A program made the translations under genes and the position numbers. From the NCBI RefSeq assembly GCF_903933125.1, contig NZ_CAIZIZ010000444.1:1-41406 (forward strand): a DNA stretch of 41,406 bases, in the 5' to 3' direction. Positions 3,301 to 41,406 of this stretch are shown one piece after another. The DNA comes from an uncultured Lamprocystis sp. GTDB taxonomy: Bacteria > Pseudomonadota > Gammaproteobacteria > Chromatiales > Chromatiaceae. The notes under the pieces are model-generated. The model worked only from the letters and a program-made list of their open reading frames with translations, made no database searches and was not told the origin of the DNA. The first letter of the stretch is position 1. The number at the start of each line of letters is the position of its first letter.

Positions 3301-4085
3301 CCGGCTCAACCCATTGCCGATCGGCGAGCCGACCGAGGGCGCGCTCTGCACCCTCGCGCGCAAGGCCGGTTTCGCGCCCGGTAAAGCCAGGCGTCTGGCG
3401 GTCATTCCCTTCGATTCGACGTCCAAACTCATGGCCACGCTCCATCAGGTGCCGCGGACGGGGTTGCGGATTCTGGTGAAAGGCGCGCCCGGCCCGCTGT
3501 TGGAGCGCTGCACCAGCCAGCGTGCCGCCGATGGCGGCGGCGAGCCGCTGGACAGCGACTGCTGGACACCCGAAGCACAAGCTGCGTCTGGTGCAGGCGC
3601 TGCAGGCCAACGGCGAGGTCGTGGCCATGACCGGCGACGGGGTGAACGATGCGCCCGCCATCAAGCGTGCCGACGTGGGCGTGGCCATGGGCATCAAGGG
3701 CACCGAGGCGACCAAGGAGGCGGCCGCGATCGTGCTGGCCGACGACAACTTCGCCTCGATCGAGCACGCGGTGGAACAGGGTCGCAGCCTGCGGCCGCGT
3801 CTGTGGTTTACCAATCCGGCGGTCTGGATTGCGGTCGGGGTGCTCATCCTGCTGCAAGGCCTGTTCGTCTATGTGCCGGTCATGAACCTCTGGTTCCACA
3901 CCGCTGCGCTGGCCGCGCGTGACTGGCTGCTGCCGATTGGCGTCGGTGTCAGCATCTTCCTGTTGATCGAGAGTGAGAAGGCGGTGGTCCGGTGGCTCAG
4001 GCCCAAGCCGAGTCCGCGTCCGAATGGTCGCCCGATCAGTCGTCTGCCCGGTAGCGTGCCTGAATCGCCGTCAAAGCAATCGTGA
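3301..4085 (+). pseudogene. Cation-transporting P-type ATPase remnant with internal deletions
   Basis: Three blocks of a PacL/Ca2+-ATPase-like pump remain. (1) About 3308-3565, second forward frame: N-domain sequence [30 protein letters not shown]. (2) About 3570-3785, third forward frame: P-domain HKLRLVQAL, the hinge motif [10 protein letters not shown], then [16 protein letters not shown]. (3) In frame with block 2, a final membrane region [18 protein letters not shown] to [19 protein letters not shown]. Missing are the N-terminal half with the phosphorylated DKTGT aspartate, roughly 100 residues between N- and P-domain motifs, and the membrane helices between GRSLRPR and FTNPAVW. It cannot encode a pump. 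Its end overlaps pta tail to tail. Confidence 0.85.
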
Positions 4086-6092: not shown

Positions 6093-6185
6093 AGGATCGA
6101 GTCTCGATTGCGGCCAGTGTTGCGGATGCCCTTCTTGCCAGCCTTGAGTGTAGCGAGTCTGCTGCCGTGTGCGACGGTGTTTATC

Positions 6186-6252
6186 GCCTTCGTACTTGAT
6201 ATCCGGACACGGCCTTGGCGTAAGGTGGGTTTGAAATCCGCCCCTACATCCG
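6186..6252 (-). repeat. Extended ~67-bp repeat, inverted relative to 7138-7205
   Basis: GCCTTCGTAC, GATATCC, GACA, TTGG, GGGTTTGAAA and CCGCCCCTACATCCG all occur in the same order and near-identical spacing in the reverse complement of 7138-7205. This copy has a decayed palindrome arm (AAGGTGGGTTT). Confidence 0.8.
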
Positions 6253-6299
6253 TTTAGGCGATTTCCGGGAAAGATTCTACCAACAGGTAGGGGTGACAT

Positions 6300-6357
6300 G
6301 TAGGTGCGACTTCAGTCGCACCGATTCGTACTCAGGTGCGACTAAAGTCGCACCTAC
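6300..6357. repeat. Tandem pair of GGTGCGACT palindromes
   Basis: GTAGGTGCGACT TCAGTCGCACC and AGGTGCGACT AAAGTCGCACCTAC form two hairpins separated by 11 bases. This is a REP-like pair (BIME-style). Confidence 0.8.
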
Positions 6358-6496
6358 ACAGACCGGTATCCAAATTGTCGGAAATCACCTTATCGCGCTG
6401 GACATCCATATCACCCGACCTGGCGTGTTGGTCAGGTTCGGTTGATCGGCACGCTGCCGGCCCAAGGCCCGCGCAGGGTCATTGCGGTCCCCCAGG

Positions 6497-6922
6497 TCAT
6501 TGCAGACCAGCGATGACCTTGCGGATCAGTCCGAGGAAGATCACGCGCTCGTCCGCCGCAAGCCCCGCCAGCGCCTGGCTGTTCACCGACTCGGCCGCCG
6601 CCGTCGCCACGCCTTCGAGTGCGCGCGCCGGCTCCGTCAGCCAGATGCGCTGCGCGCGCCCGTCTGTGGGGTCCTGGCGACGCTGGATCAGCCCGTCGCG
6701 CTCCATGCGCGTCAGGGTGTTGGCCATGGTGGGCTGCTCGATGTCCAGGCGCTCGATCAGCTCGCGCTGGGTCAGGCCGTCGCCTTCCCACAGCACCAAG
6801 AGCGCCGGAAAGGTCCCGATGCTCAAACCGAGCGGCTTGATGCGTGCCTGCAGTTCGCGGGCGAACAGCCGTGCCAGATGGTTGACGAGATAGCCCGCCG
6901 AGTCGTCTTTGCTGAAGCTCAA
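6497..6922 (-). CDS. MarR family transcriptional regulator
   Basis: 141 residues from a TTG at 6922. Winged-helix core: an N-terminal dimer helix (YLVNHLARLFARELQARI), then LTQRELIERLDIEQPTMANT as helix-turn-helix, and a wing with GLIQRRQDPTDGRAQRIWLT, the DxRxxxxxLT signature of MarR proteins. The C-terminal helix contains LIRKVIAGL. MarR dimers usually repress adjacent genes and respond to phenolic or oxidative signals. Here no divergent partner is adjacent, so the target is unknown. The frame stays open upstream of 6922 without an ATG or a good ribosome site, so the start is uncertain. Confidence 0.88.
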   Translation of the reverse strand: MSFSKDDSAGYLVNHLARLFARELQARIKPLGLSIGTFPALLVLWEGDGLTQRELIERLDIEQPTMANTLTRMERDGLIQRRQDPTDGRAQRIWLTEPARALEGVATAAAESVNSQALAGLAADERVIFLGLIRKVIAGLQ

Positions 6923-7253
6923 CTGATCGCCGGTGCCGTCAATATCGCGCTGCTTGGTCTGAATCTGCGCGATGGTCTGCGGGCGTGCTCGCGCGCTTAC
7001 CAGACCCCCTGAAGAACGCGCCGCCGGAGGCGGGCGACTTGGAGCATCTCCTGCCCGCCGCTTGCTTCATCCTCTGTCGTTTTGACCGGGATCAATGAGG
7101 CTATCTGAGTTGTTGTTTTCGCGTCGAACACGATCACCGGATGTAGGGGCGGGTTTCAAACCCGCCCCTACACCAATGGTCTGTCTGGATATCCGGTACG
7201 AAGGCTATATATTTGTCACACTGATCTCATTCCTGGAAAAACTGCAAGTGTCA
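6923..7253. other. Intergenic region with extended repeat copy
   Basis: Upstream of the secreted protein at 7254. It holds the repeat at 7138-7205 and an AT-rich TATATATTTG stretch (7206-7215) that could carry promoter elements. No gene is seen. Confidence 0.5.
7138..7205 (+). repeat. Extended ~68-bp repeat with intact palindrome
   Basis: Intact palindrome arms GTAGGGGCGGGTTT and AAACCCGCCCCTAC (7143-7171), then CCAATGG, GGATATCC and GTACGAAGGC. It is the inverted partner of 6186-6252. Copy 1936-1971 shares the palindrome and the TAAGGCTAT-like end but lacks about 25 bases between. Confidence 0.85.
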
Positions 7254-7547
7254 ATGAAGCATGTCATCATCACCGTCGCCGCGGCCATGACGCTCTCCCT
7301 GTCCAGCGTACTCTGCGCCCAGACCGCCACGGACGATGCGGCCGCCGCCCAAGCATACAAACGCATGAAGATGGACGAAGCCACTGCCGCGGACGATAAA
7401 TTTCATGCGAATCGCACCCAAGCCAACATGCTTGCCCGCGATAAGGCTGAGGCGGAGGCCGCGGATGCCGTCAAGAAGGCGCACGAAGCCGAGGATCGGG
7501 CGAGGGCTGAGAGGGACAGCGCAGTGAAGCCAGCCAGTCCGCAGTAG
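7254..7547 (+). CDS. Small secreted Ala/Lys-rich helical protein
   Basis: 97 residues from ATG at 7254. The signal peptide MKHVIITVAAAMTLSLSSVL-CAQ is followed by an acidic/basic, Ala-rich sequence (KRMKMDEATAADDKFHANRT, KAEAEAADAVKKAHEAEDRA) predicted to be one long helix or coiled coil. No Cys follows the signal except the CAQ near the cleavage site, which could alternatively be a weak lipobox (SVLC). No family recognised. It resembles in style the secreted helical protein at 1325-1687, and both are followed by the same interspersed repeat. Function unknown, probably periplasmic. Confidence 0.65.
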   Translation: MKHVIITVAAAMTLSLSSVLCAQTATDDAAAAQAYKRMKMDEATAADDKFHANRTQANMLARDKAEAEAADAVKKAHEAEDRARAERDSAVKPASPQ

Positions 7548-7606
7548 CCATGATCTCGGTCTGCGGCCGGACCTTGGTCGTGGTTCCGGCCAGCCGAGGC
7601 GTCGGC

Positions 7607-7660
7607 CGGCTGACGGTCATGAAAGGGATATCAAGCCGCCCCGGAAGATGAAAGTCCCCC
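7607..7660 (+). repeat. Interspersed repeat, copy 2
   Basis: GGCTGACGGTCATGAAAGGG, ATATCAAGCCGCCC, CGGAAGATGAAAGTCCCCC. It matches the reverse complement of 1252-1305 and lies 60 bases after a small secreted protein gene, in the same relative orientation as copy 1 to its neighbour. Confidence 0.7.
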
Positions 7661-7747
7661 GGCCGCGATGCGGTGCCGCTGGCGCTGCGCCGTCAGCGTT
7701 CCGCTTCAAGCTGGTTCCGGCGCGTCGAGATTGGGCAAGTATTCCTT

Positions 7748-7831
7748 GTAGGTTGGGCTGAGGAACGAAGCCCAACGAGGAGCCAAACGTAAGGCGCGGA
7801 AATGTTGGGGTTCGTTCCTCACCCAACCTAC
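7748..7831. repeat. Inverted pair of GTAGGTTGGG repeats
   Basis: GTAGGTTGGGCTGAGGAACG followed by AAGCCCAAC, then 27 bases later GTTGGGGTTCGTTCCTCACC followed by CAACCTAC. Each arm is itself palindromic, and the two arms are inverted copies, so a large hairpin is possible. It sits at the 3' end of the polysaccharide cluster and may help end its transcript. Confidence 0.8.
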
Positions 7832-7867
7832 GGCATTGGGCTGTTTTCGGGTTCCGAGCGAATACGT

Positions 7868-9010
7868 TCACAATCTCGTCGCCAGGGAACGAAAAAACGC
7901 CAGATAGGCCCTCGCGGCAGGCACCAGCCCGAAGGGCTCTGCGGCTCGCTGCAATGCAGCGCGATCCAAATCCCCGGCGGCGAGCCGGGTGAGTTCGGCG
8001 TCGATTGCGGCGGCCAGTGCCGCGGGGTTGCCGATCGGGACCAGGGGGCCGAGTTGCCCGTTCTGGAGCAGGCCTCGCACGCCCCCGGTGCAGTCGGTGG
8101 CGACTACTGGGGTGCCCAGGGCCATGGCCTCGACCAAGGCGTTGGGCAGACCTTCCCGCCGTGAAGATAGCACCAGCAGGTCGGCGCGAGCGAGATAGGG
8201 AAATGGATGGGCGATGAATCCAGGCAGATCCAGTCGCGTGTCGATCGCCAGTTGGCGGGCGAGCGCGGTGAGGCGCATGCGTTCCTTGCCCTCGCCAATG
8301 ATCAGCAGCCGCGCCGACCGCTGCTCCAGGCGCGCGAAGGCGCGCAGCAGGGTCGCAAAGTCCTTGACCTTGCGCAGTCCGCCCAGCGCGATGATGACGG
8401 GCGGGCGTCCGGCGCCCCGTGGTGCGGTCAGCCAGGGGTGGGTGCAGGGGGCGGCGGCCAGGGCTTCGAAGTCGTCCGGGCAGATGGGATTGTTCAGCAC
8501 CGCGATCGGCACGTCCGTCACCCCGAAGGTCCGCCGCAGATCGTCGGCGACTGCCTGCGAGACCGCGGTGAGGCCGTCCAGGCGCCGGTAATAGGTGCGG
8601 ATGCGGCGGGTCTCGCTCAGGGTCTTGAAGGGGTTCCAGCGGTGTGCGGAGAAGCGCCCGGACATCAGGGTCCCCACCGCGGCCACCAGTCGGGGGCCGC
8701 CCCCGGCGGCGGGCGGCAGCGCATCACGGGCGGCCAGGGCCGCCAGGTCGTCCTTGAGCTTGCCGGTGACCAGACAATCGGGGCGCTCACGGGCCATGAA
8801 GTCGCGCAGGAACTCAACGCGCGGTCCGGTGACGGGCAGGATGCGGATGGCCGGGTCCAGGCCCTTCAGGTAGGCATGATTCGGATCCCCGACCAGGAAC
8901 CAGATCTCGACCTCGAGCCGGGCGAGTCCGCGGGCGAGATTGGTGAAGTTGCGCTCGACCCCGCCGTCCTCGAAGTCGCTCGCCACCAGCGCGATGCGAT
9001 CAATCCCCAT
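7868..9010 (-). CDS. GT4-type glycosyltransferase
   Basis: 380 residues, GT-B fold. The N-terminal domain opens IDRIALVASDFEDGGVERNF with the GGVE motif of family-4 enzymes. The C-terminal domain has PPVIIALGGLRKVKDFATLL, LLIIGEGKERMRL, LVLSSRREGLPNALVEAMAL and GTPVVATDCTGG, holding the EGLPNALVEAM sugar-nucleotide motif. It transfers a sugar from a nucleotide donor to a growing glycan on the cytoplasmic face. Donor and linkage are unknown. It is the last gene of the minus-strand cluster, and its start overlaps the upstream glycosyltransferase by 11 bases. Confidence 0.92.
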   Translation of the reverse strand: MGIDRIALVASDFEDGGVERNFTNLARGLARLEVEIWFLVGDPNHAYLKGLDPAIRILPVTGPRVEFLRDFMARERPDCLVTGKLKDDLAALAARDALPPAAGGGPRLVAAVGTLMSGRFSAHRWNPFKTLSETRRIRTYYRRLDGLTAVSQAVADDLRRTFGVTDVPIAVLNNPICPDDFEALAAAPCTHPWLTAPRGAGRPPVIIALGGLRKVKDFATLLRAFARLEQRSARLLIIGEGKERMRLTALARQLAIDTRLDLPGFIAHPFPYLARADLLVLSSRREGLPNALVEAMALGTPVVATDCTGGVRGLLQNGQLGPLVPIGNPAALAAAIDAELTRLAAGDLDRAALQRAAEPFGLVPAARAYLAFFRSLATRL

Positions 9011-10139
9011 GATGGTCGATCACATCGGGGCCGAGCATCAGTCGCAGGTAGAGGTCGGCATTGCGCTGGGCCTCATAGCGCTCACCGCCCTGGCGCAGGG
9101 TCGCGGCCGGGAGCGGGTCGGCGAGGGTGGCGGCCAGCGCGGCGGCCAGGGCCTGCGGATCGCCGGGCGGGACCAGGGGGCCGAGGCGGCCGTTTTGGAG
9201 GATCTCGCGCGGACCGGCGCCGCATTCGGTGCTGACCACGGGTGTGCCGAGCGCCAGGGCCTCGATCAACACCGTGGGCAGGGCGTCCCAGAACGAGGAA
9301 AGGACCACCAGGTCCGCGCGCTGCAGGAAGGGGTAGGGGTTCGACGCCCAGCCGGGCAGGTCGACCGCCGCGGTGAGCCCCAGCGCGGCGCGTGCGGATT
9401 CGATCTCGGGGCGCAGTCGACCATCGCCGATGATCAGCAGCCGACAGTCACGCTCTTGGCGTAACCGGGCGAAGGCGTCCAGCAGGGTGGGCACGTCCTT
9501 CTCATACTCCAGCCGGCCGGCGAAAACCAGGACCGGGATGTCCCGCTGCGCGCGCTCGTCGCGGAACCAGGGGTGGTCGATCGGTGCCTGCGCCAGTGCC
9601 AGCATTTCGGGTGTCACGATCGGGTTGGGGATGGTGGTCACGGGTGCCGCCGCGCCCAGGAGGGTGCGCAGGTCTTGCGCGGTGTCCTCCGAAATGGCGA
9701 CGATGCCCTGATTGCGGCGGTAGTAGCGCTGGAACTCGGCGCGGCGGCGGTGGCCCTTGATGCCCTTGAGGTGGTCCAGCTTGACACTCATGCGGCCATG
9801 CACGGTGACAAAGACCGGAGTGCGGGTGCCGGCCAGGCGGGCGGCTTTGAGCGTGAACACATCCTCGCGGATGCGGTGGGTGAGGATGGCCGCCGGTCGG
9901 CGGCTGCGCAGATAGAGGGCCATGGCCGGCACCCGGCTCCAGGGCGTCATGCGCCCCATCGGGACCAGCCGCACTCCGGGGTCGGTGGCCTCGGGGATGG
10001 GGTCGGGGGCGGCGGTGATCAACAGGTCCGTCGGGAAGCCGCGCGCGACAAAGCCGTTGGCCAGTCGGGCGGCGATCTTGGCGGTGCTGCCGCCGTCGAA
10101 GGGGCCGCAGTAGACGGCGAGCCGGGGGTGCTCAGTCAT
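9000..10139 (-). CDS. GT4-type glycosyltransferase
   Basis: 379 residues. N-terminal domain MTEHPRLAVYCGPFDGGSTA with KIAARLANGFVARG. C-terminal domain has PVLVFAGRLEYEKDVPTLLD, LLIIGDGRLRPEIE and DLVVLSSFWDALPTVLIEAL, where the usual EG before LP is DA (SFWDALPT), then ALGTPVVSTECGAGPREIL. The donor-binding acidic residue EAL is kept. It is similar in plan to the enzyme at 7868-9010 (shared NGxLGPLVPxGxPxALAAA tail), so the two look like divergent paralogues. Overlaps: 8 bases with the polymerase gene upstream, 11 with the next gene. Confidence 0.92.
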   Translation of the reverse strand: MTEHPRLAVYCGPFDGGSTAKIAARLANGFVARGFPTDLLITAAPDPIPEATDPGVRLVPMGRMTPWSRVPAMALYLRSRRPAAILTHRIREDVFTLKAARLAGTRTPVFVTVHGRMSVKLDHLKGIKGHRRRAEFQRYYRRNQGIVAISEDTAQDLRTLLGAAAPVTTIPNPIVTPEMLALAQAPIDHPWFRDERAQRDIPVLVFAGRLEYEKDVPTLLDAFARLRQERDCRLLIIGDGRLRPEIESARAALGLTAAVDLPGWASNPYPFLQRADLVVLSSFWDALPTVLIEALALGTPVVSTECGAGPREILQNGRLGPLVPPGDPQALAAALAATLADPLPAATLRQGGERYEAQRNADLYLRLMLGPDVIDHHGD

Positions 10140-11469
10140 GCGCCGGCTCCGCGCCGTCAGGCTGCCGCGTCCGTCCCAGTTGGAAGCTGTAGAGCACTCC
10201 CAGGAACAGAATGCAGAAGAACCGCAAGTCCAGATTCACGACGCGGAAGTCGTACAGACAATAGAGCAGCAGCATGATCCCGCCCAAGGTCAGGAAGGTG
10301 CGCAGATCCGGGGCCGCGCGCGGGTCCGACCAGAGGCCGCGGTAGGCGCGCAACAGCACCCACAGCAGCGATGTCGCGATCAGGACGCCGACCAGACCGA
10401 AGCGCGTCAGGATTTCCACCGCGACGCTGTGCAGGTGCGAGGCCGCCGGTGCGTTGGCCCGTTGGTAAGCGTCGACAGCGACCACTCGCTCCGGGACCAG
10501 GAACTCGGTGGTACTGGTGCCGGGGCCGAAACCCAGCAGCGGCTGCTGGGCGAAGGTCTGGAGCCCCACCTTGATCAGGTTGAGGCGGATCGTCACGGAC
10601 CCGGTGTAGCTCAGTTCTTCCTGGCTGCCGATCGTGATGGCCTGCCAGTCCTCGATCTGACGGTGCTTGGTGACCCACAGCAGCGCCCCCGCCAGCGCGA
10701 TGGCGAGCGCCGCGGCGGCAAGCGCGACACGCAACTGGCGCGGTGATTGTTGGCCGAGGCGCCGCCATTCACGGCGCCGAATGATGACATAAAGCACCCC
10801 GGCCATCGCCAGGCTCACCGCCGCACCGCGTGACTGGGTGACCACCAGTACGAATAGCGACAGGGCGATGCCCAGCGACCAGAGAACCCAGCCGACGCCG
10901 GGACGTGCCTGCCCGCGGATGCGCAGCCCCGTGATGCGCGCGCGAAACAGCACGAGCCCCAGCAGCACGACCGAGGTAAGAAAGGCCAGCCCCAGCGCGG
11001 CAAAGCCGAAGTCGTAGCGCATCCCACCCAGGATTTCGGGCAGCAGTGACCAGTCGCTCTTGCGCAGCACGCCGCAGGCCAGCCCCAGAGCGGCGGCGCC
11101 CAGGACCAGCCAGATTTGGTTGGGGTCGCGGCGCAGCCACCAGGCGATGACGAAGAACAACAAGGGTGCGCTCCAGGCCGAGATCGCCCGCCATTGATCG
11201 GTCGCGATGGCGGGAAAAATCCAGGCGGCGCGCACGGCCAGCAGGCTGGTCACCAGCACGACGGCGAGCAGCAGCAGGAAGGCCGGGTCCCGGCGCAGGT
11301 GGCGCCACTGGCCGGGGATTTCCGTCAGGAATAAGGCGACCAGCAAGGCCAGTGCCACATTCGCCGGTCCGGTGATCGACCAGGCGGTGAAAGCAAAGAT
11401 CAGGAGCAGACCCCGTGCGATCGAGGGTTTACTCAGGATGGGTTTCAAGGAGCGTTCAGTGGCGTTCAT
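10132..11469 (-). CDS. O-antigen ligase/polymerase family membrane protein (Wzy_C)
   Basis: 445 residues from ATG at 11469, about 11-12 membrane segments (LLLIFAFTAWSI, VALALLVALFLTEI, LLLAVVLVTSLLAV and others). A large periplasmic loop with QEELSYTGSVTIRLNLIKVG, LLGFGPGTSTTEF and HLHSVAVEILTRFGLVGVL holds the conserved pattern of Wzy_C proteins, where R and H act in glycan transfer from undecaprenyl pyrophosphate. The family includes WaaL ligases and Wzy polymerases, and sequence alone does not separate them. A longer upstream frame exists, but the ATG at 11469 overlaps the GT2 stop by 14 bases as elsewhere in this cluster. Confidence 0.9.
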   Translation of the reverse strand: MNATERSLKPILSKPSIARGLLLIFAFTAWSITGPANVALALLVALFLTEIPGQWRHLRRDPAFLLLLAVVLVTSLLAVRAAWIFPAIATDQWRAISAWSAPLLFFVIAWWLRRDPNQIWLVLGAAALGLACGVLRKSDWSLLPEILGGMRYDFGFAALGLAFLTSVVLLGLVLFRARITGLRIRGQARPGVGWVLWSLGIALSLFVLVVTQSRGAAVSLAMAGVLYVIIRRREWRRLGQQSPRQLRVALAAAALAIALAGALLWVTKHRQIEDWQAITIGSQEELSYTGSVTIRLNLIKVGLQTFAQQPLLGFGPGTSTTEFLVPERVVAVDAYQRANAPAASHLHSVAVEILTRFGLVGVLIATSLLWVLLRAYRGLWSDPRAAPDLRTFLTLGGIMLLLYCLYDFRVVNLDLRFFCILFLGVLYSFQLGRTRQPDGAEPAHD

Positions 11470-12418
11470 GGGTGGACGACTGCTCTGTTCCGATCGGCGC
11501 GGGCCCTGGTTTGCGCGGCACCAGCGCGCGCACCCAGCGGGACCAGGCGCGCGGGGTCCAGGGGCGCAAGGCCAGCGCGCGGGTGTGCCATGATAAGGCG
11601 TCACGGCGGCGGCCCTCGCGGGCGAGCAAGAGACCCAGCTCCGAGCAACGGGCGGCAAGTTTCTTGCCGGCGGCCGGCAGGTAGCGGGCCAGGCCGGGAT
11701 CAGCGGACCAGCGTGGATGGCGGGCGATGCGCGCGAGTGCGGCCTCCTGGACCGCGATGCTCTCCTGCAACAGGGCGATGCGTCCGTGGGAGAGATTAGC
11801 CCCATGCCAGCAATAATCGATCAGAACCTCCGGTATCGCCGCGACCGGGAAGGCCTCCACGAGCCGCAGCCACAGATCCCAGTCGCCCGCCAGGTGATAG
11901 GCCGGATCGAAGACTCCGATCTGCTCCAGCGCGCAGCGGCGCACGAGCACGGTGGACGCGGCCATCATGTTGACCCGCAGCAGCCGCCCCAGGGCATCGG
12001 TGTGGTCGCTGGGGACCTGGAGCGGATTGTGCCGCTCCGCAAGCTCGCGCCCCTGCGCGTCGACCCCGCGGGTGTCGGTGTAACAGAGCCCGAGCCGCGG
12101 ATCGGCGGCGAAGCAGGCGAGCTGGCGCTCCAGCTTGCCTGGCCGCCAGGCGTCGTCCTGATCCAGCAGGCCGATGAATTCGCTGTCGCAGGCCGCGATG
12201 GCCGCATTGCGGGTCGCCTGGGTATTGCCGTTGGCGACCCGGATCAGGCGCACCGGCGGACCGAACGATTCGATGATGGCGGCTGAGGCGTCGCGGCTGC
12301 CGTCATCCGCCACCACGATCTCCAGATCGCGTTCGGCTTGGGCAAGCACGCTGTTGATCGCCGTGTGGATGAAGGCTTCACCGTTGTGACAGGGGATGAT
12401 GGCAGCTACGCGGGGCAT
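11456..12418 (-). CDS. Family 2 glycosyltransferase
   Basis: 320 residues from ATG at 12418 (MPRVAAIIPCHNGEAFI). GT-A fold with LEIVVADDGSRDASAAI, the nucleotide-binding DDGS, and FIGLLDQDDAWRPGKLERQL giving the DxD-like DQDD. Then NMMAASTVLVRRCALEQIGV and GDWDLWLRLVEAFP, where the D-W-D-L-W-L-R set is the usual acceptor-side/catalytic region. The C-terminal ~60 residues are helical and Arg-rich. Inverting or retaining outcome and donor sugar cannot be read off. It overlaps both neighbours, so the five genes at 13527-7868 form one translationally coupled run. Confidence 0.92.
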   Translation of the reverse strand: MPRVAAIIPCHNGEAFIHTAINSVLAQAERDLEIVVADDGSRDASAAIIESFGPPVRLIRVANGNTQATRNAAIAACDSEFIGLLDQDDAWRPGKLERQLACFAADPRLGLCYTDTRGVDAQGRELAERHNPLQVPSDHTDALGRLLRVNMMAASTVLVRRCALEQIGVFDPAYHLAGDWDLWLRLVEAFPVAAIPEVLIDYCWHGANLSHGRIALLQESIAVQEAALARIARHPRWSADPGLARYLPAAGKKLAARCSELGLLLAREGRRRDALSWHTRALALRPWTPRAWSRWVRALVPRKPGPAPIGTEQSSTHERH

Positions 12419-34145: not shown

Positions 34146-35795
34146 CTAAGGCCGCCGGGGCCGAGACCCAACCGGCCGCACGATCCCCAGTTTCAGCATC
34201 CGCGAGCGCAGGGTGTTGGGATTGATCCCAAGGCGTTCCGCGGCGTTCCCTGTCCCGTTGATCCGCCAGCCGCAGACGGCGCAGATGGCCAGGATGTGGT
34301 CACGCTCCACCTCGGCGAGGGTGCGCTGGTCGGCCCCGGCGGACGGATCGCGCGCCGTTGCCCGGGCGCCCGCCGTGGTTCGCGGGAGCACGTCCACCGC
34401 CATGGTCGCGCCCGGCGACAGGATCATGGAGCGCTCCACGATGTTCTCCAACTCCCGCACATTGCCCGGCCAGTCATAGGCCACGAGCGCCGCGACCGCC
34501 CGGTCCGGGACGCGCATCGCCGGCCGGTCAAGCTTGGCCCGCAGCTTTTCGACGAAATAGGCGGTCAGAAGCGCGATGTCCTCCTTGCGCTCGCGCAGGG
34601 GCGGCACCGTGATCGGAAAGACGCTCAAGCGATAGAAGAGGTCCGAGCGGAAACTGCCGTCCCGGGTCATGGCCTCCAGATCCCGGTTGGTGCTGGCGAT
34701 CACCCGGGTATCGCTACGCCGGGTCGCCGTCGCGCCCAGTCGCTCGAACTCGCCGCTCTGCAAGACCCGCAGCAGCTTGGCCTGCAACTCCAACGGCAGC
34801 TCGCCGATCTCGTCCAGGACCAGGGTCCCGCCGTGCGCCACCTCGAAGCGCCCGATCTTGCGCGCGATGGCCCCGGTAAAGGCGCCTTTCTCGTGACCGA
34901 ACAGTTCGCTCTCGATCAGGGTCGCGGGCAGGGCGGCGCAATTCACCCGGATCAGCGGGCGTTCCGCCCGGCGGCTGCGCCGATGGATCGCGGTCGCGAT
35001 CAGGTCCTTGCCGGTGCCGGTCTCGCCCAACACCAGCACCGTGCTGTCCGTTGGTGCGACTTGCTCGACTTGCAGCAGGACCCGGCGCAGCGCCGGGCTC
35101 TCGCCGACCAGCTCGTCGAAGCTGTCGCGCAGGAGCACCTCCTCCCGCCACACGGCGTTTTCCGCCTCCAGCCGCTCCCGCAGGGCCACGTTCTCCGCCA
35201 AGGCCTCCTTGAGCGCCGTCTCCTTGCGTCGCCGCATCAGGGCATTGGCGAAGATACCGGCGACGAGTCGCAACCGCCGCACCAGGTCATCGGGCCAGGC
35301 GTGCTCCCGTCGCACCGCCCCGAAGGAGGCCCAGCCGAGCACCTGGGCGTCGGCAGACAGCGGAAAGACCGCCAATGACTTCTGCCCGAGACGCGCCAGT
35401 GATTGGCGGTCCACCGATGCCTCCGGCGGCAGGTCCGCGAGCCGCTCTGCGAGCGTCGGCAGCCCGGCGCGCACCTGCCCCACCAGATAGGGAAAGTGGG
35501 CCTCCGCGAGCGGCGAGGGGATCGGCGCGATGCCGTCCTGTGCCCAGGAATGGGTGACGGTCCACTCCGCCCGCACGTCGTCGAAGCGGCCGATGGTGCA
35601 GCGGTCGAGCCCCAGGAACAGCACGATCCGACGCAGTGCCGCCTGGATGTGCGCGTCCAGCGCGCTGGCCTCCACGTTGATGAAGGAGGCCGCGAGATCC
35701 GTCAGCAGGTCCTCGAAGCTGGTCTCGGTGTGGGCCGCACACTCGGGCGGCGTGGTTCCCCCAGGGCAGCGGGCGAGCGGCGTTGGGTCGATCAT
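34146..35795 (-). CDS. Sigma-54-dependent activator with GAF sensor domain
   Basis: 549 residues from ATG at 35795, preceded by GGAGG. An N-terminal GAF-type domain (about 30-190, [20 protein letters not shown] to WASFGAVR) senses a ligand or redox signal. The AAA+ domain has Walker A GETGTGKD (~256), the sigma-54 contact loop GAFTGA (~303), Walker [13 protein letters not shown], and the arginine region [17 protein letters not shown]. The C-terminal Fis helix-turn-helix is [20 protein letters not shown]. It resembles the FhlA/NorR type. A likely target is the adjacent BASS transporter and its own operon. A palindrome at 35833 may be its site. Confidence 0.95.
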
Positions 35796-35832
35796 GGCGT
35801 CCTCCGGCGGGTCCCCTGGGCAATCGGCGCGC

Positions 35833-35850
35833 ATCACGATATTTCGCGAT
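35833..35850. promoter_or_regulatory. Imperfect palindrome upstream of the sigma-54 activator
   Basis: ATCACGATATTTCGCGAT pairs ATCnCGA with TCGnGAT around a four-base centre. It lies 38 bases before the activator ATG and could be an autoregulatory operator. Unproven. Confidence 0.35.
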
Positions 35851-36067
35851 AGAGATTACCGGAGTTTGCTCAGGCCGTCATCAACCGGGGATGCCGTTCC
35901 GCCAGCGGAGTCCGTTGTCGAGCGAGGCCGACAGACGGGCGGGGTCGGCGCGGAGGGTAAGCGAAAGCACCGGACCGATCGCACTGTACGCAATGAATAA
36001 GCGTGTTCCGTCCTCGGTGACGCTGTAAACTTGCGGACATCCACCGCAGACGACCCGGGCAAAGCCG

Positions 36068-37216
36068 ATGCACCAACGCCTTGAGCAACCCCCACTGCGG
36101 CTGAGATCCGTTCAGGTTCAAAATTTCAAGGCGATCGCAAACAGCGGTTACGTCCGGCTTGGCCCAGTCACCGTCTTCGTGGGCCACAACGGGAGTGGAA
36201 AATCCAGTCTAATCGAGGCATTGGAGACCTACCAATCGATCGTGCTGGACGGTTTGGACACGGCCATGCAGCGCTGGCTGGGTATCGAGCACGTTCGCCA
36301 CTTCGCAGCATCTCAGGGCGAGCCGAAAGGGCAGTCGCGAGCGCTGATGTCGTTCGATCTCGATCTCGGGCCTGACGTGTTTGCGCCGAAGACGGGTACC
36401 TCTCTGCATATGGAGATCGAAAGCGACCCGGATGCGAGCCAGATCCGGATCACCAAGGAGACCGCGAGACACGCCAACGGCAAGCTTTTCGACCGCTCCG
36501 GCGTGCGGGATCCCGGACGGTCGATTCTGACGTTCCCTGGAACCCAGGGACTCGAGAAGATCGCCAACCACATCCGCGACTGGCAGTTTCTCAGCCTTCA
36601 ACCGGAAAGGATGGGGCTTCCCGTGCCTCAGCGGCGCACGCCAGGGCGGGTCCGGCTAGCGAGGGACGGCAGCAATATCGCGGATTTTCTGCTCGATATT
36701 CAGCGTCGCGACCCGAGTGCGCTGGAGGGAATCGTTCAGGCGATCGGCTACGTCCTGCCCTACGCCTCGGATCTGCAGCCGCTGTTGACCTCGGAGATCG
36801 AGCGCAAGGCATACATCCAGCTATCCGAAGCCGGACACCCGGTTCCGGGCTGGATGCTCTCCACCGGCACATTGCGAGTCCTTGCGCTGCTCGCCCTCCT
36901 TCGCCATCCCGAGCCACCCCCGCTGATTCTCATCGAGGAGATCGAGAACGGACTGGATCCGCGCAGTATCCATATGCTGGTGGAAGAGATCCGGTCTGCG
37001 ACCTTGGATGGCGCGACCCAGGTCGTGCTCACCACCCATTCGCCTTACCTTCTGGACTTGTTCGAGCTCCGGCATCTGGTACTGGTCGCTCGCGACTCCA
37101 AGGGCGAACCGAGGTTCCACCGTCCCTCGGATGACGCGTCCCTGCGCGAGTGGTCGCAGGAGTTTGCGCCGGGGCGCCTCTACACGATGGGGTCGCTGCA
37201 CGAGGCGGTGAAGTGA
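36068..37216 (+). CDS. SMC/OLD-like AAA ATPase (AAA_21/AAA_15 type)
   Basis: 382 residues. It starts LRLRSVQVQNFKAIANSG, the RecF/SMC-like first strand, then Walker A VGHNGSGKSS (39-47). The middle section (about 60-270) contains a helical insert and the WMLSTGTLRVLALLALL signature-like segment. Walker B is PPLILIEEIENGLDP (~285-300), with the H-loop VVLTTHSPYLLDLF (~318-330). Such stand-alone ATPases form OLD-, Gabija- or PARIS-type defence systems or act with a nuclease partner. The next gene starts by GTGA overlap, so the two proteins are made together. No TOPRIM domain is fused here, unlike OLD itself. Confidence 0.88.
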   Translation: MHQRLEQPPLRLRSVQVQNFKAIANSGYVRLGPVTVFVGHNGSGKSSLIEALETYQSIVLDGLDTAMQRWLGIEHVRHFAASQGEPKGQSRALMSFDLDLGPDVFAPKTGTSLHMEIESDPDASQIRITKETARHANGKLFDRSGVRDPGRSILTFPGTQGLEKIANHIRDWQFLSLQPERMGLPVPQRRTPGRVRLARDGSNIADFLLDIQRRDPSALEGIVQAIGYVLPYASDLQPLLTSEIERKAYIQLSEAGHPVPGWMLSTGTLRVLALLALLRHPEPPPLILIEEIENGLDPRSIHMLVEEIRSATLDGATQVVLTTHSPYLLDLFELRHLVLVARDSKGEPRFHRPSDDASLREWSQEFAPGRLYTMGSLHEAVK

Positions 37217-37833
37217 CAGCCCCCTCGCTTGGCCTGATCCTGGAATGCGGTCCCCAAGGCGCCGACAAACAGGTCTGCGAATACGTGATCGAGCGTATCA
37301 GGCCCGGGATGCGAGTGCGCAGCGAAACACTGGATAACAAAGCGAACCTCTTGCGAGACTCCGGAAAGGTCGCGGCCAGGTTGCTCAAAGACGGCTGCGC
37401 GTGCGTACTGATCGTCTGGGACCTGCGCCCAGCCTGGCCGGACCGCACCGACAAACCTTGTCGGCATGCCGAGCGCCGCGAGCTCCTGAGCCGGCTGATG
37501 GAGGCTGGCGTACCCGAGGATGCGCCGGTGTATCTGGTCTGTGTCGAGCAGGAGTTGGAAAGCTGGCTAATTGCCAACGAAAGATCGCTGAGCGCGTTCT
37601 TGTCTACCCCCGCTCATCCGTTCCCGGTACCGCGAGTCAGGAGCCCGGATCGACATCCGCAACCGAAGGCCGAGGTCATCGGACTATTCAAACAGGCCAG
37701 AGGTTGGCGCTATAACGACACTGTTCACGCCGTCCGGGTCCTGAAGGCAGTCCAGTTGGATTTTGGGCGCTTGCGGTGCTCCGAGAGCTTTTGCCGGTTT
37801 GAGAAGATGGTGTTGGCCTGTCGCGGTCGCTGA
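37213..37833 (+). CDS. TOPRIM/DUF4276-like partner protein
   Basis: 206 residues from GTG at 37213, which overlaps the ATPase stop by four bases. An ATG is not available near this point. The N-terminus LGLILECGPQGADKQVCEYV places a Glu (11) and GAD after the first strand as in TOPRIM folds. The second acidic site is CVLIVWDLRPAWPD (Asp70), and a later VCVEQELESWLIAN resembles the E-x-W-L-x-A/D motif of DUF4276. DUF4276 proteins pair with AAA ATPases in putative defence loci, where the TOPRIM part may cut nucleic acid. The family call rests on motif reading, not on a search. Confidence 0.7.
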   Translation: MTAPSLGLILECGPQGADKQVCEYVIERIRPGMRVRSETLDNKANLLRDSGKVAARLLKDGCACVLIVWDLRPAWPDRTDKPCRHAERRELLSRLMEAGVPEDAPVYLVCVEQELESWLIANERSLSAFLSTPAHPFPVPRVRSPDRHPQPKAEVIGLFKQARGWRYNDTVHAVRVLKAVQLDFGRLRCSESFCRFEKMVLACRGR

Positions 37834-37951
37834 TCCGGTGGCGATGGAGTAGACCCAAAAAAACAGGAAAAAAGGCCAAGCTTAATCTATTAAATTCTCA
37901 TCCGCCCGACGGATTTAATTGAGCCTGACCCCTTAGTCCTCCCTACGGCTC

Positions 37952-38101
37952 TTGACCGTCATCGAGAAGAAGGGGATTCAAGCCATCGCTTGAAAAACGG
38001 GCCACGACAAGAAGCGGCACAAAGGGCTCTGACCCGATGAGAAGTATGCCTTGAAGCCGGCAATTCAAACCAAACAGGCACAGAGGAGACCGCAACGATG
38101 A
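37952..38101 (+). pseudogene. Possible decayed toxin gene upstream of the antitoxin
   Basis: In one frame the DNA reads LTVIEKKGIQAIA, stop, KTGHDKKRHKGL, stop, PDEKYALKPAIQTKQAQRRP QR, then a TGA that overlaps the antitoxin ATG (ATGA). RelE/HigB-type toxins partnered with NadS antitoxins commonly end with a TP-x-x-x-x-x-ALK-x-x-I helix and overlap the antitoxin in this way. Two in-frame stops and the missing catalytic middle mean no toxin can be made. Identification is tentative. Confidence 0.35.
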
Positions 38102-38430
38102 CGCCTAAACGCAATCTGTTCGCCGAGATCATGGATGGTGTGGGGGCGATGCGGGCGCAACGGGAGGGCAAGATCACCCTGCGCACGCGCGAGGCGGAAG
38201 ACCTGCCGACGCTGCGGGTCGATGCGGCGCTGATTCGGGAGACCCGGGAGCACCTGAGCGTGTCGCGGGCGGTCTTCGCCCGCCGACTGCGCGTGGCGAC
38301 GCGCACCCTGGAGAATTGGGAGCAGGGGCGGGCAACTCCCAACGCACAAGCCGCGGCGCTGATCCTGATGGTGCGCCAATACCCGGATACCTTCGATAAG
38401 CTTCGGTCGCTGGCCAGCGCGGCGGCATGA
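38098..38430 (+). CDS. NadS-type helix-turn-helix antitoxin
   Basis: 110 residues with AGGAG upstream. N-terminal helix NLFAEIMDGVGAMRAQREGK, then ITLRTREAEDLPTLRVDAAL, and an XRE-type HTH: LIRETREHLSVSRAVFARRL, RVATRTLENWEQGRATPNAQ, AAALILMVRQYPDTFDKL. The SRAVFARRLxVxxRTLENWEQGR core is that of NadS/HigA-like antitoxins that bind their own promoter and neutralise a RelE-like toxin. Normally the toxin gene lies just upstream and overlaps. Here only a degraded frame is found, so the antitoxin appears orphaned. Confidence 0.88.
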   Translation: MTPKRNLFAEIMDGVGAMRAQREGKITLRTREAEDLPTLRVDAALIRETREHLSVSRAVFARRLRVATRTLENWEQGRATPNAQAAALILMVRQYPDTFDKLRSLASAAA

Positions 38431-38522
38431 TGCCAAGGCCTTGACATAATAGGGTGCAGATCATGTTTGATTCTCCACCCGTCGATATCACCATTCTTGG
38501 TGAATAAACGTGTGGTCTATCT

Positions 38523-38551
38523 CTCATTACGCTCATTACGCTCTCATTACG
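38523..38551. repeat. CTCATTACG triple repeat
   Basis: CTCATTACG at 38523, 38532 and 38543, the third offset by CT. Lies between the antitoxin and the 3' end of the helicase. No function evident. Confidence 0.8.
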
Positions 38552-38604
38552 CTTCTGGACGGCCGCCGACTCCCCCGGACACTCGCAACCGCCATCGTCC
38601 TGAA

Positions 38605-41145
38605 TCAGCCCGAAATATAGAACTTCGAGCAAAAATCGAACGGCTGTCGGTTTCCGAACCGCCCCAGATTATCCAATACGGTGATGATCCGGCAGCGCGC
38701 CGTCCCGCCATTTAATGGTCCACGCAGCCCGCGCCCCACCATCTGCATGTAGCGGACCGGGCTCTTCACCTGGCGGGCGATCAGCACCAGGTCCGTCTTG
38801 GGCGCATCGAAGCCGGTGGTCAGCACGCTGTGATTGCACAGTACCCGAATCTCCCCGGACTGGAAGCGGTCGAGGAACCAGCGGCGTGCGGTCCGCGGGG
38901 TCTCGCCGCTGACCGCTGCGGCCGGGATACTGCGCAGACAGAGCCGAGCCGCCATCTCCTCGGCGTGGCCGACCGAGTTGGTAAAGAACAGGATGCTGTG
39001 AGCGTCGCTTGCGTCGATGGTCTGGAGCAACAACTCGTTTCTGGTCGCGTTACCGGCCAAGTCCTGGTTGACCCTCTCGAACAACCCGTCGAGCCGGATA
39101 TCTTCCGTCGTTCCGTCCCAATCTTCGAGTTCAGTGAACAGGTCCGTGGACACTGTTGTGTTCGACTCCAGGGGCTCGTGATCGGCGTGGGCCAGGACGC
39201 CCTGACTGCGCAGTCGCGCATAGAGGTCCTGCTGATTCGTCGGCAGCCAGCGTTGGTCGAAACGCCGCGCGAGCCGGTCGCTCCCCTCCTCGTCGATCCC
39301 GCGGAAGGGCGTCGCGCTGAGCCCGATGAACGGCGGCTCCTCCTTCGCGGACGCGCCGGGGCGCGGGGCCTCCGCATCCAGCCAGCGCAAGACGTTGGTA
39401 TAGCTCTTGGTGATGGCGTGGTGACATTCATCCACCACCACCAGCCCAGGGGTCTTGAGCCAGCGCAGTGCCTCCAGATCGATACGGCTGTTGAGGGTCT
39501 GGATCGAGGCGACAACCACGGTCGGCTCGCCCGCAGCGGGTGCCGACGGATTCCCCGCGCCGCCCCAGAACCGAACCACCCGCAAGTCGGTCGCCTGCGC
39601 CCCGCGATTCAGCCAGACTTGGCGGAATGACTGCACCGCCTGCTCGCATAGCTCGTCGGTCTGGGCGATCCACAGGACCGTGCGCCGCGGGCCGGGCGGA
39701 GCCAGCACCCGGTCCACTGCCGCCTGCACCGTAACGCGGGTCTTACCGCCGCCGGTCGGCAGGCTCACGACGGCGCGGCGTCGACCGGTGCCGCCCTCGA
39801 TCAAGGCCCGGAGCCCATCGGCGACTTCCTCCTGAAAATCGTGCAACGGCGGTAGTGGGATCGGCCCCGAGACCCAAAACTCCGCATCCCGGCGCGCGGT
39901 CTGGGCGACCGCGAAGGCCTCAGGAAACCTCAACTCCAACACAAAGGCCCGCGCCTCCTCCGTGCCCCACCGATTGGGCGGGCGCAGGTCGGCCGCTTCC
40001 AGCGCCCCACGCAACGCTTGCAGCACGGTCGGACCCAACAAGGCCAACGCGAGCTCGGCCACCTGCAATGGCTCGGCATCCGGCGGCAAGGCGGAACAGG
40101 CCCGCTCGCCCAGGGCAGCCATGAGGGCCTCCACATCCCCGCCGACCGCCTGCAATAGACGCTCGGCAAGTCCCGCTGCCGCCGCAACCTCCGCCCGACG
40201 GGCTTCCAGGGTCGCATCGGCGATACGGCGAATGGCCTCATCGGGACCACAGTTGAGCCAACCGGCCGTCGATGCCTCCCGCAGGACGCGAAGCAAGCGA
40301 TCTTGGCGTGGCAGGGCGTCCAATTGCCCGGGATCGAGATACAGCACGCCCTGCCAGTGAATACAGAACACCGGGTCGGGATGATCCTCAATACTCAGAT
40401 GAAGTCCCTGGACCGATTGGCTATAAGTTTGATCCGCTTGGTCCTTGGCCAAGACCACGGCGATGTCAGGGATAGCGTCCTGGAGCAGACAGACTGGCGC
40501 CAGTGCCTCGGTCCAACCAACCTTGAAGGCATCGTCAAGACTCTGCGCCCCCTGTCCCAGCCACAGCTTGCGGGCGACCTCATCCAGTTCGAACACCAGT
40601 CGACCGCGGTCCCGGGCGCGTCGGGCAAGGTCCTGAGAACCTGTGACGTAGGCCTCAGTGAGGGGCACATTGCCGTTCGGGCTGGGCAAGGATTTCCAGA
40701 ACTGGCTGTCTGCCGCCGCTCCATTCCAAAGATCTTTCAAGTCGCCGTTGCGGATTCGCTCGGGGGTGGCGAGGTTCTCGCGCAATCCCCGCCAGAATAG
40801 GCCCAACTCTTCGCTGCTTGGCTTGGGCAATGATTGGGTCGCCAGTGCTATCAGCCTGGGTATCGAGTCTTGAAGCTCCTTGACTTGCTGCAGAGCGGGC
40901 GAGCCGATGCGCGCGAGGACGGTGTTGACCTGTACAATCTGTTTGCCGATCTGGATGGACCCATACTCACGGAGCAGCCAGCGCAAGGGGTGCTCGACGG
41001 GGACCTTCTCAAATTGGTTCCGCCGCTCATGGTGCTCGAATGTCAAGGTCTTAGGAAAGTTGCCCAGGTTACGCAGGAGTTCCTGGGTCAGACGCGCTCT
41101 CGCGACGCCCGCGAGCCGGGGAAGCAGGACAAACCCTGCTGGCAT
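38605..41145 (-). CDS. Large DECH-box helicase with long N-terminal region
   Basis: 846 residues from ATG at 41145. Residues 1-430 form an N-terminal region of unknown fold, starting FVLLPRLAGVARARL. SF2 helicase: motif I VVSLPTGGGKTRVTVQ (~461), WIAQTDELCEQAVQSFR, motif II VVVDECHHAITKSY (~568), motif III GLSATPFRG (~608), then the second lobe with ILFFTNSVGHAEEMA, VLCNHSVLTTGFDAPKTDLV and motif VI YMQMVGRGLRGP (~800). It ends VLDNLGRFGNRQPFDF CSKFYISG. DECH helicases of this plan occur in defence loci and in some restriction-like systems. The frame stays open and protein-like for about 44 codons before the ATG, without a usable start codon, so the gene may be the 3' part of a longer one. 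Confidence 0.85.
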   Translation of the reverse strand: MPAGFVLLPRLAGVARARLTQELLRNLGNFPKTLTFEHHERRNQFEKVPVEHPLRWLLREYGSIQIGKQIVQVNTVLARIGSPALQQVKELQDSIPRLIALATQSLPKPSSEELGLFWRGLRENLATPERIRNGDLKDLWNGAAADSQFWKSLPSPNGNVPLTEAYVTGSQDLARRARDRGRLVFELDEVARKLWLGQGAQSLDDAFKVGWTEALAPVCLLQDAIPDIAVVLAKDQADQTYSQSVQGLHLSIEDHPDPVFCIHWQGVLYLDPGQLDALPRQDRLLRVLREASTAGWLNCGPDEAIRRIADATLEARRAEVAAAAGLAERLLQAVGGDVEALMAALGERACSALPPDAEPLQVAELALALLGPTVLQALRGALEAADLRPPNRWGTEEARAFVLELRFPEAFAVAQTARRDAEFWVSGPIPLPPLHDFQEEVADGLRALIEGGTGRRRAVVSLPTGGGKTRVTVQAAVDRVLAPPGPRRTVLWIAQTDELCEQAVQSFRQVWLNRGAQATDLRVVRFWGGAGNPSAPAAGEPTVVVASIQTLNSRIDLEALRWLKTPGLVVVDECHHAITKSYTNVLRWLDAEAPRPGASAKEEPPFIGLSATPFRGIDEEGSDRLARRFDQRWLPTNQQDLYARLRSQGVLAHADHEPLESNTTVSTDLFTELEDWDGTTEDIRLDGLFERVNQDLAGNATRNELLLQTIDASDAHSILFFTNSVGHAEEMAARLCLRSIPAAAVSGETPRTARRWFLDRFQSGEIRVLCNHSVLTTGFDAPKTDLVLIARQVKSPVRYMQMVGRGLRGPLNGGTARCRIITVLDNLGRFGNRQPFDFCSKFYISG

Positions 41146-41406
41146 GGCGATGGAAGACGGAAAGTAACTATCTTCAGATACGAAGGGATGATGGCGTTTG
41201 TAAGCAGAAATCTTCGATTGCGTCCACTGCTGAAGGGTTGTGCAAACGTCCGTAGGCGCTCGTTTATAAGTACTTCAACTAAAATATTTGTACGCACATC
41301 TTACTCTCAGGAAAACCATAAAATCAGTGTTTTATTGCAACTTTTTTCGATACTGATTATCTAAAGCAGTATAGGAAGAAACCACAGTGGAGGTATCGTC
41401 TGTCGC
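41146..41406 (-). other. AT-rich segment upstream of the helicase ATG
   Basis: In the helicase frame it reads, from the edge, TDDTSTVVSSYTALDNQYRK KLQ, stop, NTDFMVFLRVRCAYKYFS, stop, STYKRAPTDVCTTLQQWTQS KISAYKRHHPFVSEDSYF and into the helicase. It is either the decayed 5' part of a larger gene or the end of another minus-strand gene plus a leader. GC content is visibly lower than elsewhere. Confidence 0.45.

What the first reader, a model, noticed from the sequence alone, without database searches (positions are those of the whole stretch)
36068..37833. Coupled SMC/OLD-like ATPase and TOPRIM/DUF4276-like pair: candidate defence module
The ATPase has Walker A, Walker B and H-loop but no fused nuclease. 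The next gene begins by GTGA overlap and shows acidic TOPRIM-like positions (E11, D70) and an E-x-E-S-W-L element. This split arrangement resembles PARIS (ATPase plus TOPRIM/DUF4435) and OLD-type systems but with a different second protein. It sits beside an orphan antitoxin and a large helicase, as in defence islands.
Basis: partly seen in the sequence, partly recalled or inferred. Interest (0 to 1): 0.65.

Follow-up and report, generated by a model that had tools for sequence, protein, structure and literature searches.

The report
Solitary OLD-ATPase/TOPRIM nuclease defence pair
Two coupled genes of a purple sulfur bacterium encode a sensor-like ATPase and a partner predicted to cut nucleic acids, which in related bacteria usually sit inside a larger DNA-methylation defence operon but here have been kept on their own, probably as an emergency anti-virus system.

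Summary
A (36068-37216) is an OLD/Rad50-type ABC ATPase. B (37213-37833, GTGA overlap) is a DUF4276 protein (31.1 bits, cut-off 30.2) with a confident model (pLDDT 92) whose five best VIA matches are OLD-family structures, four of them isolated TOPRIM regions (Z 9.2-10.4). PADLOC's candidate HEC-01 fits both proteins. Both refutation tests failed: the profile match exists, and A lies directly upstream of B in 17 of 19 relative loci.

The surroundings add most. In 16 of 21 relative loci (two on plasmids) the pair ends an operon led by an Eco57I-type methyltransferase, often preceded by an SNF2 helicase. In two Thiodictyon genomes one helicase locus carries either MTase-A-B or PIN-MTase-Schlafen, exchanged up to the B stop codon. 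The window's pair is a methyltransferase-free derivative: solitary copies form one clade among linked ones, keep the conserved residues and show dN/dS below 1. I read it as a TOPRIM-linked OLD-ABC backup effector that left its restriction-like operon. Such effectors are described in print; defence activity and substrate are untested.

The parts
36068..37216 (+). A: OLD-type ABC ATPase, 382 aa, the presumed sensor
   Evidence: Pfam AAA_21 E 3.8e-30; PADLOC HEC-01A 4.1e-45; model (pLDDT 75.8) with VIA Z 15.8-17.9 to SMC/Rad50 heads, T. scotoductus OLD, PtuA, AriA
37213..37833 (+). B: DUF4276 TOPRIM-fold protein, 206 aa, the presumed nuclease effector; GTG start overlaps A's stop
   Evidence: PF14103 31.1 bits vs cut-off 30.2; AlphaFold pLDDT 92.0; VIA rows 1-5 are OLD-family structures, Z 9.2-10.4; E11, D18, D70, E114, E116, K152 invariant in 20 of 20 proteins
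36025..37938 (+). Solitary unit: A, B and short flanks, shared with a second Thiodictyon genome (G404) at 95.7% DNA identity with unrelated flanks
   Evidence: blastn of L044 and L046 against the window; the match starts at 36025 in both, and L046 ends inside B
35934..35996 (.). Left edge of the presumed insertion site: this 63-bp stretch lies 114 bp (G403) or 72 bp (G401) from the antitoxin-side match in genomes without the pair there
   Evidence: in G401 window 37943-38033 lies inverted further on, so the site has also been rearranged
38036..38097 (+). Remains of the 3' end of a RelE-like toxin gene, no open frame here
   Evidence: match to G403 and three-frame translations; toxin identity recalled from the look of the peptide, not profile-tested
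38098..38430 (+). HTH antitoxin (MqsA/NadS-like), neighbour, not part of the system
   Evidence: Pfam HTH_31 1.7e-6; NCBIfam TIGR03830 and NadS below cut-off
38605..41145 (-). RadD-like superfamily 2 helicase, 846 aa, neighbour, link to the pair not shown
   Evidence: ResIII 1.2e-18, Helicase_C 5.8e-14; RadD 97.8 bits vs cut-off 720

Best explanation
The pair is a two-gene, TOPRIM-linked OLD-ABC module of the HEC-01 kind. Shown: a coupled OLD-type ATPase and a DUF4276 protein with a TOPRIM-like predicted fold, conserved as a unit, in most relatives found the last two genes behind a methyltransferase, and in the window a derivative without that operon whose codons still show purifying selection. 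Inferred: A is an ATP-dependent sensor that holds B inactive; a phage event (an anti-restriction protein, or damage to a host DNA-processing complex) changes A and frees or activates B; B is a metal-dependent nuclease that cuts tRNA or DNA and aborts the infection. In the operon form the pair would be the backup that fires when the methylation-guided restriction is disabled. In the window it would work alone, in the manner of PARIS.
For: Family matches: AAA_21, DUF4276, HEC-01A/B. Fold: B's best VIA matches are OLD-family structures (Z 10.4, 169 residues aligned for 6nk8); A resembles OLD, PtuA, AriA and Rad50/SMC. Residues: the metal A glutamate and first aspartate, a metal B glutamate and a lysine of the B. 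pseudomallei OLD active site (PMC6755086, passages) have invariant candidates in B: E11, D70, E116, K152. Linkage: A directly upstream in 17 of 19 loci. Operon: a c2 methyltransferase precedes A in 16 of 21 loci (19 plus 2 plasmids), overlapping A's start by 4 bases in 15, with a 190-aa frame between in L022; a c3 helicase precedes it in 10 of the 14 with enough flank; PLD-SNF2 domains in the two helicases read in full. Backup role: at one locus MTase-A-B is replaced by PIN, another MTase and a Schlafen/HATPase protein; TOPRIM/OLD, PIN and Schlafen are named as backup suicidal effectors of BREX and related systems in PMC12839542. Autonomy: solitary copies are one clade (support 1.000), A dN/dS 0.14, B 0.32; no close relative of the methyltransferase or helicase in the window's genome (best E 9.1e-11 and 2.0e-17, partial domains).
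Against: Nothing here shows phage defence. Plain Foldseek gave B no PDB match at E <= 0.001; the OLD matches come from the second aligner only, and unrelated folds reach Z 9.0. At the second aspartate of the TOPRIM DxD motif, B has Arg (18 of 20) or His/Tyr (1 each), and the position that would match OLD E404 is variable (Q15), so the metal site must differ or activity may be altered. PADLOC's HEC-01B match is weak (best 7.4e-8, profile positions 75-148 of 204). In G402 B runs into unrelated sequence at a contig end after about 101 codons. No promoter-like site was found in 35700-38700 (0; 0.7 expected in shuffles). Four of 14 methyltransferase loci with enough flank lack the c3 helicase.
Confidence: 0.6

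Rival explanations
1. The pair is a DNA-cleaving OLD-type nuclease split over two genes: A loads B onto foreign DNA (ends or stalled forks) and B degrades it directly, with no abortive step. (It shares the nuclease step with the best explanation, so the odds overlap.)
For: The closest solved folds to B are OLD TOPRIM regions that cut DNA; a lysine corresponding in order to OLD K562 is invariant (K152).
Against: AriB and, by the passages seen, P2 OLD cut tRNA, so the fold does not fix the substrate. Position 72 is not acidic. The solitary form lacks a linked methyltransferase to protect the host's own DNA.
Confidence: 0.25
2. The pair is a part that cannot work without the methyltransferase and helicase: the true restriction nuclease of that operon. 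The window copy is then a non-functional leftover.
For: The methyltransferase precedes A in 16 of 21 loci, and the MTase-A-B block is exchanged as one piece behind a constant helicase. The aligned methyltransferase N-termini show no acidic residue two before the conserved K110, so that protein itself may not cut.
Against: Solitary copies are a conserved clade, A and B frames intact in three of the four genomes seen, dN/dS 0.14 (A) and 0.32 (B). The helicase already carries a PLD nuclease domain in the two full-length proteins read. The other cassette at the same locus carries PIN and Schlafen genes.
Confidence: 0.17
3. A housekeeping or repair ATPase-nuclease pair with no defence role.
For: OLD relatives outside defence exist (Cran1; start of abstract in search listing). 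The left neighbours are ordinary genes.
Against: Patchy distribution (4 of 8 genus genomes; 5 of 210 in the order), plasmid-borne copies beside a methyltransferase, and exchange at a restriction-like locus.
Confidence: 0.08

Closest known systems
HEC-01 (PADLOC Hma-embedded candidate)
   Same: Adjacent ATPase (HEC-01A, E 4.1e-45) and DUF4276 protein (HEC-01B, E 7.4e-8)
   Different: B matches the HEC-01B profiles weakly and in part. Its clade has D-x-R/H/Y where the two other DUF4276 proteins compared (L030, first pair of L014) have D-x-D and D-x-E. Usual neighbours are an Eco57I-type methyltransferase and an SNF2 helicase.
PARIS (AriA/AriB)
   Same: Separate OLD-type ATPase and TOPRIM protein; A's model resembles AriA (Z 16.9 to 8v46)
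   Different: B is DUF4276; no DUF4435 or AriB profile matches at E <= 1
OLD family nucleases and Gabija GajA
   Same: ABC ATPase plus TOPRIM; B's nearest solved folds
   Different: Two genes, not one; no second DxD aspartate; no UvrD-type partner seen
Backup effectors of BREX and BREX-related systems (Rakesh and Krishnan 2026, PMC12839542)
   Same: TOPRIM-linked OLD-ABC, PIN and Schlafen modules beside an N6-MTase and an HKD-Snf2 helicase
   Different: The paper's Type-2 BR systems also carry DUF499 and DUF3780; neither was matched among the neighbours scanned, but most neighbours were not scanned
MADS
   Same: A and a relative's methyltransferase match mad3 (1.2e-23) and mad2 (best 8.8e-15)
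   Different: A scores 122.5 bits against a cut-off of 420 for MAD3; other MADS genes were not looked for

Membership tests
HEC-01 candidate system | HEC-01A-type ATPase | tested here: met
   PDLC04178 E 4.1e-45 over residues 8-378
HEC-01 candidate system | HEC-01B/DUF4276 partner | tested here: met
   DUF4276 31.1 bits vs 30.2; PDLC04196 E 4e-7 over 28-199; all 18 members match PDLC04194. PADLOC's own score and coverage cut-offs were not available
HEC-01 candidate system | the two genes adjacent in one operon | tested here: met
   17 of 19 loci; the other two are a contig edge (L026) and a partial B not preceded by A (L030)
HEC-01 candidate system | anti-phage activity | not testable with these tools
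   no wet assay; passages seen report activity for HEC-04 and HEC-06; none seen gives a test of HEC-01
PARIS | AriB-type DUF4435 TOPRIM protein | tested here: not met
   no DUF4435/AriB match at E <= 1
PARIS | AriA-type OLD ATPase on its own gene | tested here: met
   PDLC02980 3.7e-30 (its coordinates and length equal AAA_21's, so it is generic); VIA Z 16.9 to 8v46
OLD TOPRIM nuclease | TOPRIM fold | tested here: met
   predicted model only: VIA Z 10.4, rmsd 4.6, 169 aligned to 6nk8; no Foldseek E <= 0.001
OLD TOPRIM nuclease | invariant glutamate and first Asp of DxD (metal A) | tested here: met
   E11, D70 in 20 of 20; equivalence inferred from order and aligned range, not from coordinates
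OLD TOPRIM nuclease | second Asp of DxD (D457 in B. pseudomallei OLD) | tested here: not met
   R 18, H 1, Y 1 of 20
OLD TOPRIM nuclease | metal B glutamate (E508) and catalytic lysine (K562) | tested here: inconclusive
   E116 and K152 are invariant candidates, distances not measurable here
Gabija | single GajA ATPase-TOPRIM protein plus UvrD-like GajB | tested here: not met
   two separate genes; nearby helicase is ResIII/DEAD, minus strand
MADS | MAD3 equivalog | tested here: not met
   122.5 bits vs cut-off 420
BREX-related Type-2 (for the relatives' operon) | HKD/PLD-Snf2 helicase and N6-MTase | tested here: met
   PLDc_2 and SNF2 in the two full helicases read; Eco57I methylase
BREX-related Type-2 (for the relatives' operon) | DUF499 ATPase and DUF3780 | tested here: inconclusive
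   none among the neighbours scanned, but most neighbours were not scanned

The most novel reading that the evidence does not exclude
A modular restriction-like system not named in the papers I could search: a constant PLD-SNF2 helicase with interchangeable cassettes, each a methyltransferase bundled with its own suicide effectors (OLD-ATPase/TOPRIM in one, PIN plus Schlafen in the other), swapped as a whole between strains. The TOPRIM effector uses a variant D-x-R site, and its two-gene core can leave and persist as a self-sufficient defence unit, as in the window.
Probability: 0.3. Interest if true: 0.6.

Novelty: new variant of a known kind. Interest (0 to 1): 0.42.

Why it matters
Backup suicide effectors inside methylation-based defences have been inferred from gene neighbourhoods. 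Here one locus in two close genomes shows the effectors and the methyltransferase exchanged as a block, and a sister lineage shows that the effector pair can persist without the block. That gives a direct test: does the two-gene core work alone, and what triggers it? The D-x-R change also offers a natural variant of the TOPRIM metal site in a clade whose other putative active-site residues are mostly unchanged.

Tried and rejected
Phage origin: no relative of B in viral contigs (30 pattern stretches, none confirmed) nor in phage records. Plasmid copies of the window's own region: none; the protein has 2 plasmid relatives. Solved homologues of B by sequence: none convincing (three rows, best E 0.24). 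AriB did not appear among the 50 VIA rows for B; this excludes nothing. A second DUF4276 gene in the window's genome: none at E <= 0.01. A partner methyltransferase or helicase elsewhere in the window's genome: only partial domain matches. The 'defence island' reading of the window's left side: not supported. Papers: DUF4276 gave 0 papers. 'HEC-01' gave 5: one, PMC12724379, lists HEC-01 among systems detected in Desulfovibrio piger (passage); the other four are unrelated by title. MADS component names gave 0. The HEC source preprint was not found in the library's listings. Papers seen: passages of PMC8565338, PMC10855318, PMC9252829, PMC12988326, PMC10568477, PMC6755086, PMC12409363, PMC12904381, PMC12926258, PMC12458937, PMC12111858 and PMC12724379; outline with abstract, sections 30 and 35 (part 1 of 2) and passages of PMC12839542. 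Other papers named were seen in listings only. Results against my reading are in the Against line.

Full report
What is there. A matches the whole AAA_21 profile (E 3.8e-30), and B passes Pfam's cut-off for DUF4276 by a small margin (31.1 against 30.2 bits). PADLOC's library calls them HEC-01A (4.1e-45) and HEC-01B (7.4e-8, partial). No NCBIfam model matched B at E <= 1, and A is far below the MAD3 cut-off. The pair is the only DUF4276 locus found in its genome.

Relatives. One scan of genome contigs gave 19 loci with relatives of B. A lies directly upstream in 17. The exceptions are L026, where B begins near the contig edge, and L030, where the end of a B-like gene is joined to a start that does not match B, next to a second ATPase-DUF4276 pair. 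A 4-base start/stop overlap holds in 16 of the 17 loci with both genes. Two cyanobacterial plasmids carry further relatives, 46% and 39% identical, with a 2-base gap between A and B. In the alignment of 18 B proteins the putative active-site residues are invariant. With the two plasmid proteins and G404 added and L026 left out (20 proteins), E11, D18, D70, E114, E116, W118 and K152 stay invariant, while R72 and E112 do not.

Fold. B's model is confident (pLDDT 92.0, pTM 0.88). Foldseek gave no PDB match at E <= 0.001. The second aligner put OLD-family structures in rows 1-5 (Z 10.4, 9.4, 9.3, 9.3, 9.2; rows 1-4 isolated C-terminal TOPRIM regions, row 5 full-length T. scotoductus OLD); unrelated folds, largely riboflavin and lumazine synthases, follow from Z 9.0. 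The OLD rows thus stand only a little above unrelated folds, but rows 1-4 align 161-169 residues against 101-133 in rows 6-20. In the B. pseudomallei OLD paper (PMC6755086, passages) metal A involves E400, D455 and D457, metal B E404, T506 and E508, and K562 is catalytic. The aligned range starts at B residue 2 and OLD residue 391, which puts E11 at E400. By order I take D70 as D455, E114-x-E116 as T506-x-E508 and K152 as K562; I could not measure distances. The DxD motif is D-L-R in 18 of 20 proteins (H and Y in the two cyanobacterial ones), and position 15 is not conserved while D18 is. Two other DUF4276 proteins have D-L-D and D-A-E there, so the arginine looks like a feature of this clade, on a sample of two. 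A's model (pLDDT 75.8) matches SMC and Rad50 heads, retron/Septu PtuA, T. scotoductus OLD and AriA at Z 15.8-17.9.

The operon in relatives. Of 21 loci (19 plus the two plasmids), 16 have the same protein (cluster c2, 1143-1224 aa where complete) upstream of A: overlapping A's start by 4 bases in 15, with a 190-aa frame between in L022. Of the other five, L014 and L028 have the pair without it, L016 and L026 end at a contig edge, and L030 is the partial copy. In the 14 with enough flank a helicase of cluster c3 precedes c2 in 10. c2 is an Eco57I-type methylase in the two proteins scanned, with the N6-adenine motifs DPAxGSGAF and NPPW conserved; its aligned N-terminal region shows no acidic residue two before the conserved K110 (motif judgement recalled). 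The two helicases read in full, on the Anabaena plasmid and in G404, have a PLD domain before the SNF2 helicase; the best PADLOC matches of the Anabaena one are HKD+Snf2 and DrmD.

A natural exchange. In G404 a helicase gene, 98% identical in protein to that of G403 over the 426 residues compared, is followed by a PIN gene, another Eco57I-type methyltransferase (about 40% identical over some 370 residues) and a Schlafen/HATPase gene. Against G403 the DNA is 95% identical to the end of the helicase gene (L079 2509-6191 = L045 355-4040), then differs but for two 66-73% stretches inside the methyltransferases, then is 94% identical again from L079 11625 = L045 9365 (L031 6602), two bases past the B stop codon. 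So one locus holds either MTase-A-B or PIN-MTase-Schlafen. TOPRIM/OLD, PIN and Schlafen are classes that Rakesh and Krishnan (PMC12839542) call backup suicidal effectors in BREX and BREX-related systems.

The window's solitary pair. The genus is taken as Thiodictyon, since G403's contig 131 has the length of NZ_CAIKKU010000131.1 (18872; 'uncultured Thiodictyon sp.') and its helicase and MTase are 100% identical. B was found in 4 of 8 genus genomes, G000 included, and in 5 of 210 genomes of the order, those four included. In G403 it is in the operon; in G000, G402 and G404 it is alone. Window 36025-37938 matches G404 at 95.7% with unrelated flanks, and G402 has the same left end; in both, an Abi_2-like gene lies upstream (below Pfam's cut-off in G404, above in G402). 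In the window the unit lies between a 63-bp stretch (35934-35996) and an antitoxin-side stretch (38036 onward in G403, 38097 onward in G401) that are 114 bp and 72 bp apart there. The toxin frame before the antitoxin is broken in the window; in G403 and G401 it is short too, and in the two further copies read it could not be made out. That the unit's arrival broke it is inference.

Derived and still selected. In a FastTree of A plus B (20 taxa), window, G404 and L014 form one clade (support 1.000) inside methyltransferase-linked lineages, with L013 and L015 next (0.995, 1.000); IQ-TREE did not run. Window against G404: A has 18 synonymous and 8 non-synonymous changes (dN/dS 0.14), B 17.5 and 18.5 (0.32); A against G402 0.145, B's first 100 codons 0.22. 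In G402 B is cut after about 101 codons at a contig end; I cannot tell an insertion from an assembly edge. The window's genome has no close relative of the methyltransferase or the helicase; G404 has the helicase locus with the other cassette.

Mechanism. The best reading is an OLD-ABC sensor with a TOPRIM effector that works as an emergency module: embedded behind a methylation-based restriction system in most relatives found, free-standing here. That A senses, that B cuts, what B cuts (tRNA as for AriB, or DNA as for OLD) and that the result is defence are inferences. The rank is moderate: the kind is known (HEC-01; [quoted passage not shown]

Noticed in passing
L079 (G404:C1:5818000-5834000) 2485-11688 against L045 (G403:C131) 355-9365: Exchange of a methyltransferase-effector cassette behind a constant PLD-SNF2 helicase: PIN-MTase-Schlafen in one genome, MTase-OLD-TOPRIM in the other.
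   Followed up: yes
window 41266-41400: A repeat of about 135 bp at the window's right end occurs at 98-100% identity in seven other contigs of the same genome (one a 69-bp part), several times at a contig end, so it is probably the end of a mobile element that breaks the assembly.
   Followed up: no
window 37886-37935: A short hairpin-like repeat downstream of B recurs at about 75-86% identity in several genomes of the genus; it may be a terminator or REP-type element at the end of the unit.
   Followed up: partly
L030 5614-6342 and 6515-8473: A B-like C-terminal half with a start that does not match B lies just before a second, different OLD-ATPase/DUF4276 pair: a decayed copy beside a whole-looking one.
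   Followed up: partly
L014 1666-3837: A second, distant HEC-01-like ATPase (HEC-01A 7.4e-93) with a weak DUF4276 partner lies about 1 kb upstream of the solitary pair in this Chromatiaceae contig.
   Followed up: partly
L024 3-1229: Upstream of the methyltransferase, in place of the c3 helicase, this locus has a HATPase_c_4 protein 31% identical in part to the Schlafen/HATPase protein of the other cassette.
   Followed up: no
L046 3135-3854 and L044 6348-6896: Abi_2-like gene upstream of the solitary pair in two Thiodictyon genomes but not in the window.
   Followed up: partly
window 38605-41145: RadD-like helicase of 846 aa with no Pfam match in its first 430 residues; a 70%-identical DNA copy lies on another contig (C263) of the genome.
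   Followed up: no
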